From NCBI GenBank assembly GCA_034509925.1, contig CM067531.1, positions 3,839,501 to 3,903,500 on the forward strand: a stretch of 64,000 nucleotides of DNA, in the 5' to 3' direction. The translations under genes were made by a program, and so were the position numbers. The notes under the pieces are model-generated. The model saw only the letters and a list, made by a program, of their open reading frames with translations, was not told the origin of the DNA and did not search any database. This document shows positions 56,396-62,300 of the stretch, one piece after another (the first letter of the stretch is position 1; the number at the start of each line of letters is the position of its first letter). The stretch is from Hirudinaria manillensis (lineage: Eukaryota > Annelida > Clitellata > Hirudinida > Hirudinidae).

Positions 56396-59300
56396 CTAAC
56401 ACGTCCGATGTCTCCTGGTGGAGGGGACTGGTGAGTTATCAGTGCATTCGTCCTTCAAAGAAACATTTGGGAAGCAAATTAAATGCAATTCACTTGATTT
56501 TGTTTAAATTAGAGGGAAGGAGATTAATGGTTTAATTAAATTAAATATTCAATTTGATGTTCCTTGTTTTAATTAACTTTATGCCATAGAATGCAGTCCC
56601 TCGTTTTCTTCTGATCGCTAATTTAAACTTAATTAAAATTCAAATCGAACAAACCCACCAATGTTGTGTTCATATTCTTTTCCTCGCTTTTTGATGAATT
56701 CCTCTCAATGGGATCAATCTAAAGTTAAATGAAACCATAAACTGAAGATATTCTGCACTTCTGCCAATCCATTTTGTCAAACTAATATCTGAAAGTGAAT
56801 GTTATTAATCATAAGATATTACCAGAGGCAGCTTAAGTCTATTCTTTCTCCTCTTCCTCATCTCTCGTTCTTCGATTGACCTCCTTCTGTCCATCTTCCT
56901 GCTTTCTTCCAGCAGGATTTCGTCTTCTATCGTTTCGTGTTCTTTAATTTCTCTCATTTCCTGCCTCTTTGCTTCAATCTATCATTAGAAATCATTATTT
57001 ATTTTTGATAAAAATATTCAAGAAAAATGTAATAGGATAAGCCAGACAATATTTACATCTATTGGCTAACATTATAATTTTGCAGCACTTTTCATGAGTC
57101 GACACAAAAGCAATTTCTCTCACTTGATTCAGAAGTTCGTCTAAATATTGCAGCCTCCTTATTTTGTCATATTCCTCCTGGAGAATAACAAGTGCAGATA
57201 ACTCTAATACCAAAAATATACAAATGGCAATATAAATTTATAGTTATCAATATTTAAAACATACTTTTTTCAAGTCATTAACCAATAAGAGAATGAAAAA
57301 TGACTTCAAAACGTTACTTTGTCATCACCTTTTCATTGTCCGACTCCGCCAATGTCCTCAATAACCTCCCTTTTTTAACTTCCCTGCCCGATCTCATTTC
57401 TTTCTCTTCTTGCAATCTCAATAGTTCCAGATCTGCTAACTTTTCTTCTTCTTTTCGTAACAATTCCACTTCTTCTTTTAATCTCATCTGAAAATGAATA
57501 TAGAGATATATATAGTATATACTAGTATTTATATATATACTAGTATTTAACTATACTTTTTTTATATTTAAATTAACTATATATTTTGTAACATACAATT
57601 CAAATGACTGCAAATGTCTAATACAAAATTAAACATTCATTTATTTTTACATTCTGTAATTTCTCAGATATAATAATGTTTTGCCAATTTTATAAAATTA
57701 TTTAATTTTTTCTTCAAAATGGCCAGCCTGCTCAAGTAGTTCTGCCTTGTACTTCAAGTTGTTTATCTTTTCTTTTTCTAACTGTGAAATTAATTGCAAG
57801 GATGGCATTCAGTTTTGAATGTTAACAAATAAATAATAAATATATCAGTTAATAAATAAGTCACTTTGTTTATCAATAAATTCCATCTGAAATAAATGTA
57901 TTATTTATAGAAACAGAAACAAAGCAACCTTGAGCCTGTTGATTTCGTTAATTTGATCCTTCAATTTCCCTCCGATGCTTCCGAGTCGAGATTGAAGTCC
58001 AAACGTTCCTTCGCTTGCTTTCGTCAATTCTTCCTCTTCCAGCAGATCCTTTTGTTTCTCTTCCAACTCCAGTTGCCTCCTCCTGTTCATCTGTGATATA
58101 AAAATGGCATCAATGTTTTAAAAGACCATTTCACATGTTTGATTCAGAACAGGAACTATTTATATTTATGGCAGATATAACAACCAGACTTATACAGTAC
58201 TGATATTACTTATAATGCAATACTTTAAAGTGTTATTTAGTTTGAGCATTTAGGTCAATTTAATATTTCAAGTTAGTAAGTGACCTGATTTATCAATTCC
58301 ATTTGATACTCAGTATCTGATGATTCTTTTATAAACTGAAATAAAATCATTTCTCAGTTCAGTGAAAAATATAAATATTTATTTGCCCAAATATGATTAA
58401 TTTTGATATCAATTTAAATGTAATTTCATTTGTATCACCAATATTAACTCTTTAATGGCATTATTAACTCTTTAACAATGGGACAGCAGATGACACAACT
58501 AAAATATTGACATGGATCTAAGAGAATAACCAAAACCACAAAGAAAATCAAAACCTCTCCTCAAAATTTGCAAACCTGTGTTCTCCTTCTCCTGACTTGG
58601 ATTTCCATTTGAGATTTTACTTTCTTTTCCTCCTGCAACTTCAACAATTCTTCATCCAATGCCAACTCTTTCAACTTTTCTTCTATGAGTTTTTGTTGTT
58701 TCAGTCGTATCTGAACAAAGGCAGAGACCACTAAACAGCTACTTTCAATACATAATTAATATGACAGTATTATGTAAGTTATGCCAATAAATACTTGTTC
58801 GACGTTATATCACCAATGTATATTACCAATCTGATGCAGTAAATTCATTGCTATAAAATACTCTACCTGTTCTAATAATTCTTCTTGGAGTCTGAGTTCA
58901 TTCAGTTTTTCTTTGTCATCCTAAACAAAATACAATTCATTCCTTTTGCTTCTCTCATACATAATTTTTACCTTTTTAAATATTTAACAAGTAAAATCAT
59001 CTTGGTGCAAAATTTTATCTCTAAGGTTACTAATACAATACAAAATCTCTTTTAACTTTTAGTTCTTGGCTTGCACACTCTGCATTGAATTACCAATGCT
59101 TTTATGCAGACCGTGCCTTTATGTTAACCATGATATTATTTAAATTAGTCTGTTTAATAAATAAGAGAATGCTTTACCTCTTTCCCATCCTGACTTAAAT
59201 CCAACTTCTTGAACCCTCGTGAGGTTCTCAGTCGAAGCTCCTGCTGTAGTTTGTCGTCTTTCTCTTGAGACTGCTTCATCATTTCCTCGTCTTCCAAAAA

Positions 59301-62300
59301 ACTTCTTTTCCTTTCAAGTTCTTCCAGTCTTTGTTTGAATTGAATCTGACAAAAATTGCCACTGAAATTGCAAAACTTTAAAGCGACATTTATGACTAAA
59401 AAAAAAGAACCATGGACACATTCAAATAATTCTTAGAAATATTGGTTGTTCAGGTTTCGAATTTCTTTGCAGATTACTTTTTGAAATTAAAATATTATTG
59501 CCAGTATTAAAAAGGTTTTTTAAATTATGCAATTATTTGAAACAAACACGTGTTGAAGTACGAATGCTTTAATGAATGATTATTTAAGGACCTGATCGAG
59601 CAGCTCTTCTTGGTATTTTAAAATGTCTATTATCGGCTTCCTTGTCTGAAAATATGGTTATTACTTTTTTAATCACGTTTTATATAATAATTCAATTCCT
59701 GTGACTCAAAATAAATTGTTTATTATTAAGAAATTATTTTGAAATTCATCCATTATAAGGCGACCTGCAACTTAATCGGTTCAACGAATTTGATGTGTTC
59801 CTTTATATCCTCCAGCTCTTTTTCGTGTTTCTTCCTTCGTTCTTCTTCCATCCTCAGCATCAACATCTCCTCTTCCAGTCTTTCTTTCACCTCTTTTTCC
59901 TTCATTTCTTTCTTCATCTGAATCTATCAAACATTTGCCACATCATACATACATGAATATGATCATCACCATCGCCACATTGGTTAGTCCAGACCCATTA
60001 ACATTTTGGATAATTCAAAATTTTGGAGATGTTCTCTTCTTACCTCTGGGGAGTTGAAAATACCTCCTCCCCCTAGATATCTGTATGAATCTGTGATCAC
60101 TATCATCACCGTCATTTATTCACCACTATCAACATCGTCGTCATCACACATCACATCATACATCACTTACTTGTTCAAGCAGCTCTCTCTGGTACTTAAG
60201 TACTATATACCTTTCTCTTTCTAATTTCTAAAAAAACAAAATAAATACTTTAAATAATAATAATAATAATAACAATAATAATAATATTAATAATTTGTTT
60301 CGTTAGAGTGGCATATGTCCGGCGGACTTCAAGGCCACTGATGGGGGTGAGGATGACTTTCCCTGAAGAGGAAGGTCATCAGGGCGGAGTGGAAGCCTGC
60401 TGGGTCTAAGGTCATCACTGAGGTATCTAATCTTAAAATTCAATTCCACTTTTATTAAAATTAGTTTCACTTTTAATCGTTCTTCCTCTTCCAACTTCCT
60501 GTTGATTTCTTCTTGTTCCTGTTGAAATTTCCTTTCCTGCTCCTCAATTTGTTTCATAAATTTTTCTTCCTCCAATTTGTCCTTCAACTTTTCTGCTTTA
60601 AGTTTCTCCTGCTTGTTTTTTATCTGATTTGATAAATGAGATTCAAATGACATTCAAATAAACATATTCAACATTTCAACATCATACTTGCTGAAAAGTC
60701 CAGAGAGTTGGAAACATTAAATACAATTTGTACGTTAATTAAATACAATTTAGGTTTTCAATTATGCCAGTGTCTGGTCTTCCATGAATTGAAGAATTAT
60801 TAATTAAAATTGAATTATTATGAAAGGGCAGTTACAAACTAATTACTAATAAAACTCATTGAAAGAGAGAAAACAGGCATACCTGCTCAAGTAAATCCTC
60901 CTGATATTTCAACCTATTTTGCTTCTCATATTCTGACTAAATAAAAGAAGAGATTGGCATGTAGCAAAAAAAAAACGACAACACCGAGCAACTAAACGTG
61001 TTTTCCTCACCAGTGGTTGGCCGAATATTCCGTGACCCCCTCTGGCGAAAGTGGCTCCATTGGATTTCACTTGCGGAAGATCGGAGCAGGAATCGTTCCT
61101 GAGACTCGAATGGCAGTCTTTAAACTTCCTTACGAGCGCTTGTTTCGCATCAGACGTTGAAATGTTACTGAAAATCTCCTTAAATGGAACTTGATGATTC
61201 CTCGGAAGTTCTTGAGGAGCTACGGAATTAACTTTTTGCATTTTTGGGCATTAAATGCAATGTTAAATTTAGTTTTAATTAATTTTTACTTAAATTTAAT
61301 TTATAAACTAAACCCTTTGATTGCTGCTCCTCTAACTTGATCAGATTCTCACTCTTTCTTATCACTAAAAGTGTTCAAGAAATGTTATATTTTATCAAAT
61401 TTCACAGTCACTTTGCTTCTTTTTTAAACTGACTTCCTCATCAATAATGAGTTAATGTGCAAGCAAATGATTTGTAAATTGTTATTTAATTACTGAATAA
61501 ATTTACCTTTAATAATATTAATACTGCCAGTGATATTAAACTTGAGTTTAGTTATAATTTCATGAATTAGAATTTGTTTTCTTAGAAATTATAAAAAGAA
61601 AGGTATAATTTTTTGGATTATACTCAAGTTTAATATCATTATTATTCATTTTATTATTATTATTATTATTATTATTATTATTATTATTATAAAAAAAAAC
61701 TTGGAACCTAGATTTAATATAAGCATCTAGAATCAAGACCGGTCATTATCATCATCAGCACTGAAAACCTACTGATGATGTTTCCATAAACATCCCTCAA
61801 TGGGGCTCCAGGATTGCATAACTGATGGTCCATTCCTCTCTGCAGCCTGAATCGGTAATAAAAATGAAATGATATAATAAGTAATTATATAAAAAATTAC
61901 AATGCAAAACATACCATAACACATACATGTATTTTAGGTGCACATAGCACAAAGTAAAATATCATCCTTAACTCAGCAACACTTTTAATAATATAATTAC
62001 TTTTAAATACATGTATAATAATGATCATTGTTATCATTATCATCAATCAATTCATTACAAAGTAATGAAGCAGTTTATGTTGTCTATCTATTCAAGTCAT
62101 TATTAGTTTTTAAGAAGATAAATGGTTATTATTACTTAAAACAATTATAATAACCATGAAAGATCAGTCTATAATAATATTGCAATATTTTAAGTGATGT
62201 CTTTTAAACTGCTACTCACTGATTGTCTAAGTCCTTCTCTTTGTACTTTCTCATTCTGTCAATCTGCATCTGAAGAGAAAATTTAAAACATTGGCTCATA

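What the first reader, a model, noticed from the sequence alone, without database searches (positions are those of the whole stretch)
56823..60936. Seven tandem repeats of one exon pair in a coiled-coil gene
Fourteen consecutive exons alternate short (54, 57, 54, 54, 51, 54, 54 nt) and long (153, 153, 168, 135, 162, 159, 156 nt), all in phase 0. Every short exon carries a Y/L-x-x-E-L-L-x-Q type ending; every long exon is a Lys/Glu-rich helix of near constant length. This is exon shuffling by serial duplication of a two-exon module, which lengthens a rod by about 70 residues per copy and lets any pair be skipped without a frameshift. In the CSPP1/CCDC66 group, as I recall it, the motif occurs but not this regular module, so it may be a lineage-specific invention.
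Basis: partly seen in the sequence, partly recalled or inferred. Interest (0 to 1): 0.75.

Follow-up and report, generated by a model that had tools for sequence, protein, structure and literature searches.

The report
Leech microtubule gene with repeated exons
A gene that looks like a leech version of CSPP1, which makes a protein that stabilises microtubules, carries seven old, diverged copies of one two-exon helix unit in a row; the architecture is real and unusual, but whether only leeches have it and what it does are still open.

Summary
Seven short/long exon pairs lie on the minus strand at 56823-60936, open and in phase 0; with four upstream exons they give 629 codons without a stop. Aligned from the exon edges the units beat all shuffles and heptad-keeping rotations (0 of 5000, 0 of 10000), and 7 of 7 score best in the true register. 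Corrections: long exon 2 is probably 159 nt; short exon 6 has a weak GC donor; the ends of the long exons are hardly conserved; silent sites are saturated, so the copies are old. Upstream motifs and the best tblastn hit (L1, E=2e-6) point to CSPP1, but the human sequence was recalled, not fetched. By paper numbering plus a recalled offset the unit corresponds to CSPP1 helix H6, the 'pausing domain' (PMC9948759, passages). The assembly fits the leech Hirudinaria manillensis. Best reading: a CSPP1 orthologue whose H6-like module was serially duplicated into a multivalent helical microtubule binder. No other annelid gene could be searched and no RNA was held, so 'lineage-specific' and exon skipping stay untested.

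The parts
62527..62611 (-). upstream exon U1, ends ..KKKVYQQELLKQ|, phase-0 donor; resembles the start of CSPP1 H4 (human sequence recalled)
   Evidence: frame and splice dinucleotides; top U-region window of the module profile
62220..62269 (-). upstream exon U2, MQIDRMRKYKEKDLDN + 2 nt
61773..61846 (-). upstream exon U3, ..NPGAPLRDVYGNII; CSPP1-type motif
61011..61219 (-). upstream exon U4, ends FARGGHGIFGQPL|; CSPP1-type motif; only match of its protein in the genome
60883..60936 (-). short exon S1
60471..60623 (-). long exon L1; best tblastn hit of recalled human CSPP1
60171..60227 (-). short exon S2
59592..59645 (-). short exon S3
59178..59345 (-). long exon L3
58867..58920 (-). short exon S4
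58576..58710 (-). long exon L4
58285..58335 (-). short exon S5
57929..58090 (-). long exon L5
57728..57781 (-). short exon S6, GC donor
57329..57487 (-). long exon L6
57124..57177 (-). short exon S7
56823..56978 (-). long exon L7; may instead be the last exon, reading on (VISYD) to a stop at 56805-56807

Best explanation
The exons belong to the leech orthologue of CSPP1. A unit of two phase-0 exons, whose boundary falls right after Y-x-x-E-L-L-x-Q, encodes one helix of about 44 conserved residues plus a variable stretch. Serial DNA-level duplication of the unit, introns included, gave seven copies after the FARG..FG.P element. In human CSPP1 the segment at that place is helix H6, the pausing domain, so the likely effect is a protein with several H6-like helices in series that contacts the microtubule lumen or end at more points, with in-frame exon or pair skipping able to tune the number. 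Shown here: exons, phases, open spliced frame, homology of the units, saturated silent sites, one gene copy plus fragments. Inferred: orthology (human sequence recalled), correspondence to H6, multivalent action, skipping.
For: Likeness of units anchored at exon edges; same S|L intron place and phase in the 7 units and at U1|U2; recalled human CSPP1 hits L1 best (E=2e-6) and shares GAPLRD..GN and FARG..FG.P in the same order; the module profile marks recalled CSPP1 417, 626 and 764 in exact S|L register (z 3.5, 3.4, 2.9, which are 2nd, 4th and 5th by z of 1213 windows; raw scores 11.3, 21.8, 19.9; best z in reversed CSPP1 3.0, in tropomyosin 2.5); the paper gives H4 as part of the microtubule-binding piece 375-453, H6 706-796 as the pausing domain, and CSPP1 as luminal (PMC9948759, passages); a degenerate copy of L4-S5-L5 elsewhere differs at 7 of 348 exon and about 51 of 619 aligned intron and flank sites (Fisher p=5e-5), which speaks for constraint on these exons and shows that the stretch can be copied with its introns.
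Against: No convincing N- or C-terminal CSPP1 part among the 60 listed tblastn hits over 50-80 kb or by patterns over 54-68.3 kb. No Pfam family over its cut-off. The human sequence is recalled, and a text search for four of its peptides found 0 papers. In the human scan a non-helical window ranks first by z (212, z 3.6); two of the three helices exceed the best reversed-sequence z by only 0.4-0.5 and one lies below it. The tree has 0 of 8 strongly supported branches and does not show the seven units as one clade (p-AU 0.188). S6 donor is non-canonical. AlphaFold2 gives unbroken helices. No RNA data.
Confidence: 0.7

Rival explanations
1. The seven-unit array is an old feature of CSPP1 in annelids or wider lophotrochozoans, and vertebrates kept or shrank to fewer units; nothing is special to leeches.
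For: Silent sites saturated (same codon in 125 of 320 same-residue cells, 39%, against 47% expected); the S|L intron place is shared with the H4-like U1|U2, so the split unit is older than the array.
Against: Units are more alike among themselves (35%) than to recalled human helices (23%), which fits growth after the split from vertebrates.
Confidence: 0.5
2. The gene is a helical microtubule protein of another family with CSPP1-like motifs, not the orthologue.
For: No convincing N- or C-terminal CSPP1 parts; no Pfam family over cut-off; human sequence only recalled.
Against: Motif order GAPLRD - FARG..FG.P - Y..L..QI helix; no second candidate gene found by the U4 protein.
Confidence: 0.1
3. 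Chance likeness of Lys/Glu-rich helices.
For: Composition is K/E/R/Q-rich.
Against: 0 of 5000 shuffles, 0 of 10000 heptad-keeping rotations, 7 of 7 in leave-one-out.
Confidence: 0.01
4. The locus is a decaying gene: truncated ends, a lost GT donor in S6, exons no longer used.
For: GC donor in weak context; missing ends.
Against: 18 exons give 629 codons without a stop; exons L4, S5, L5 are better kept than introns relative to the ectopic copy.
Confidence: 0.1

Closest known systems
[quoted passage not shown]
   Same: Order of GAPLRD..GN, FARG..FG.P and Y-x-x-x-L-x-x-Q-[IM] helices (human sequence recalled); [quoted passage not shown]
   Different: Seven H6-like units in a row here, one by recall in human; human N-terminal region, a separate H5 and the C-terminal region not found here
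CCDC66 (PF15236)
   Different: PF15236 is not among the families listed for the protein at E up to 10; in the genome its only match is on another contig, E=0.37, under the cut-off
Tandem duplication of symmetric (0-0) exons (general process, from knowledge)
   Same: Phase-0 units, constant boundary
   Different: The unit is a pair of exons, split inside one predicted helix

Membership tests
CSPP1 | GAPLRD-x-x-GN motif | tested here: met
   9 of 13 residues identical to recalled GAPLRDAKGNLIT in the unspliced translation of 61771-61809
CSPP1 | FARG..FG.P before a Y..L..Q helix | tested here: met
   FARGGHGIFGQPL then S1; human motif recalled, compared by eye
CSPP1 | Y-x-x-x-L-x-x-Q-[IM] helices | tested here: met
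   profile marks recalled human 417, 626, 764 in register, with modest z of 3.5, 3.4, 2.9
CSPP1 | N-terminal FIEEQK.. and SLPLG.. region | tested here: inconclusive
   not among the 60 tblastn hits listed over 50-80 kb; patterns over 54-68.3 kb gave nothing convincing; short diverged exons could be missed
CSPP1 | C-terminal centrosome-targeting region | tested here: inconclusive
   no convincing hit; L7 may end in a stop
CSPP1 | Binding in the microtubule lumen, growth pausing | not testable with these tools
   needs protein
CCDC66 | Match to PF15236 | tested here: not met
   not listed at E up to 10; genome search: one weak match on another contig, under cut-off; the tool's 14 control genomes gave none either
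Tandem two-exon module | Same phase and boundary, homologous sequence | tested here: met
Tandem two-exon module | Exons spliced together in RNA | not tested
   no RNA held

The most novel reading that the evidence does not exclude
Leeches (or annelids) turned CSPP1's single pausing helix into a seven-unit array whose number in the protein is set by in-frame skipping of exon pairs, so that splicing works as a dial for how many tubulin sites inside a microtubule are bridged and how stable or slow-growing that microtubule is.
Probability: 0.15. Interest if true: 0.65.

Novelty: new variant of a known kind. Interest (0 to 1): 0.42.

Why it matters
CSPP1 is a Joubert-syndrome protein whose helices have separable jobs on microtubules (PMC9948759, passages). 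A natural gene in which one of those helices is repeated seven times, on exons that could be left out without breaking the frame, would let one test directly how the number of units sets binding and pausing. It also shows how a helical protein can grow by copying a unit split across two exons.

Tried and rejected
Chance coiled-coil likeness: rejected by shuffles, rotations and leave-one-out. A first profile scan with the units' own composition as background favoured rare residues and put module 2 (2.0) below the best tropomyosin window (6.1); it was replaced, in which 7 of 7 pass. Tree of units: unresolved. Pfam: none at E up to 1; PEX-1N (0.3 and 0.023) and TetR_C_29 (0.12), all under their cut-offs. 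PDB: one K/E-rich chain at E=0.039 by protein and a ribosomal protein at E=0.2 by profile, both taken as chance. Other genes with the module in the genome: only the ectopic fragment (these searches score only the best candidates). Intron likeness between units: within-class mean z 0.45 and 0.82, between-class 0.32, largest 4.6, 3.0 and 3.2, not followed up. Gly/Pro count: the core limit of 27 was set with the sequences in view; limits of 30 and 32 give 1 of 308 against 11 of 182 (p=1e-4) and 2 of 322 against 10 of 168 (p=6e-4). Structure prediction of two long exons gave unbroken helices, of little weight for such short K/E-rich pieces. Papers: listings (and 41, empty), and passages of PMC9948759, PMC8151252, PMC4524657, PMC10530576, PMC10087013, PMC10671345, showed no report of this array; that is not proof that none exists.
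Full report
WHAT IS THERE. On the minus strand at 56823-60936 fourteen exons alternate short (17-19 aa) and long (45-56 aa). All are in phase 0; 14 of 14 have AG acceptors, 13 of 14 GT donors, and S6 has CAG|GCTGGC. With four upstream exons they give 18 exons and 629 codons without a stop. Pair lengths are 69, 72, 74, 63, 71, 71, 70 aa, mean 70, and the thirteen introns run from 119 to 259 nt. The 5' end of the gene was not found; L7 may be the last exon, reading on to a stop.

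MORE THAN CHANCE. Anchored at the exon edges and without gaps, the last 14 residues of the short exons (z=17.6) and the first 30 of the long exons (z=12.3) exceed all 5000 residue shuffles; rotations that keep residue order and heptad phase never reach the value (0 of 10000, z=7.9). Long-exon residues 31-45 are weakly alike (20 of 5000 shuffles reach the value) and the last 20 not at all (3594 of 5000). In leave-one-out scans 7 of 7 units have their best score in the true register (z 4.6-8.0; next register 2.2 or less; recalled tropomyosin 2.7 or less). An earlier version of this scan put module 2 below tropomyosin because its background favoured rare residues.

AGE AND MANNER OF COPYING. Cells with the same residue use the same codon in 125 of 320 cases, less than codon usage predicts (47%). 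Introns of one class are hardly more alike than those of different classes (mean z 0.45 and 0.82 against 0.32; largest single pair 4.6, not followed up). The duplications are thus old. A 1-kb stretch holding L4-S5-L5 and part of S6 with introns also lies about 365 kb away (C6:3531102-3532153) at 89% identity. There L4, S5 and L5 differ at 7 of 348 sites (the broken S6 left out of the count) and introns and flanks at about 51 of 619 aligned sites (p=5e-5); 6 of the 7 exon differences fall on first or second codon positions and one makes a stop in S5. If only the copy drifted, 7 or fewer would be expected in 2.4% of cases, so the exact history is unclear. A second fragment, the last 41 nt of L1 with 188 nt of the intron behind it, is copied at 52193-52420 at 94%. 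Stretches of this gene are therefore copied at the DNA level, introns included.

WHICH GENE. Upstream exons U1-U4 encode ..YQQELLKQ|MQIDRM....GAPLRDVYGNII....FARGGHGIFGQPL. I recalled human CSPP1 (1256 aa as typed) and used it as a probe: best tblastn hit residues 770-831 on L1 (E=2e-6); GAPLRD..GN matches at 9 of 13, and the FARG..FG.P motif follows in the same order. The module profile finds recalled CSPP1 417, 626 and 764 in exact S|L register; by z (3.5, 3.4, 2.9) these are 2nd, 4th and 5th of 1213 windows, the first being a low-scoring non-helical window, and the best reversed-sequence window reaches 3.0, so the evidence from this scan alone is modest. PF15236 (CCDC66) is not among the listed families and has no match over cut-off in the genome. 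The paper's pausing domain within H6 is 706-796 and its microtubule-binding part with H4 is 375-453 (PMC9948759, passages); with a recalled offset of 35 residues between isoforms the pausing domain becomes 741-831, which holds the FARG..FG.P element plus the helix that matches L1. U1-U2 pairs with H4 in the tree (94/88; the rest unresolved), so a separate H5 may be missing. The U4 protein has one match in the genome.

ORGANISM. The mitochondrial contig of 15,581 bp uses AGR as Ser; I read the translated frames as cox1, cox2, cox3, nad6, cob in that order (only cox1 rests on a search), with tRNA-Gln between cox3 and nad6, the annelid order as I recall it. The Hirudinaria manillensis assembly of PMC10671345 (passages) has 22 scaffolds, N50 11.46 Mb and a 15,581-bp mitochondrial genome; G000 has 23 contigs and contig C6 is 11,463,318 bp. 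The total differs slightly (148.43 against 148.59 Mb). I take it as that leech; the three leech assemblies in PMC10087013 differ in size (passages).

HOW IT MAY WORK. The conserved core has two hydrophobic patches (columns -13 to +1 and +16 to +23) separated by a charged stretch, with no peak at a period of 3.5. Gly and Pro occur 0 of 287 times in the core and 12 of 203 outside (p=2e-5; with wider limits 1 of 308 and 2 of 322 in the core, p=1e-4 and 6e-4). This suggests helices joined by looser stretches, as the paper describes for CSPP1; AlphaFold2 on single long exons L1 and L5 drew unbroken helices, which speaks for a rod but is weak. I favour a multivalent array of H6-like helices. In mammals the short CSPP1 isoform lacks a 52-residue internal piece, and the microtubule-organising fragment with that deletion binds less at 10 nM; in mouse, alternative splicing of exon 17 is cited and exon 12 is skipped more often in HuD knock-outs (PMC8151252, passages). 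Skipping here is plausible, not shown.

NOVELTY. Tandem exon duplication is a known process and CSPP1 a known family. The seven-unit array is a variant that I found described in none of the searches named above, but no orthologue from another invertebrate could be searched.

Noticed in passing
G000:C6:3531102-3532153 (L016): Degenerate copy of window 57746-58755 (L4-S5-L5-part of S6 with introns), set between a copy of window 47999-48920 and a copy of the RING-protein gene at 52760-54023.
   Followed up: partly
52193-52420: 94% copy of 60283-60511: the last 41 nt of exon L1 with the intron behind it.
   Followed up: partly
57728-57781: Short exon S6 has a GC donor in weak context; no in-frame GT is available.
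   Followed up: partly
about 60253-60433: The intron between L1 and S2 holds a dispersed repeat: the search listed 82 matches with 40 of 315 candidates scored; some belong to short tandem pieces.
   Followed up: no
47278-47679 and C6:3527000-3539000: Homeodomain exon (PF00046) in a region with further partial copies, one 93% identical over 2.6 kb, others 69-86%.
   Followed up: no
L030, G000:C9:3027121-3027393: A nuclear contig carries a cox1 piece with the same score as the mitochondrial one: a recent nuclear mitochondrial insert or an assembly artefact.
   Followed up: no
25773-26798: Long tandem array of a short unit, open in three minus-strand frames as an (SLTH)n peptide.
   Followed up: no
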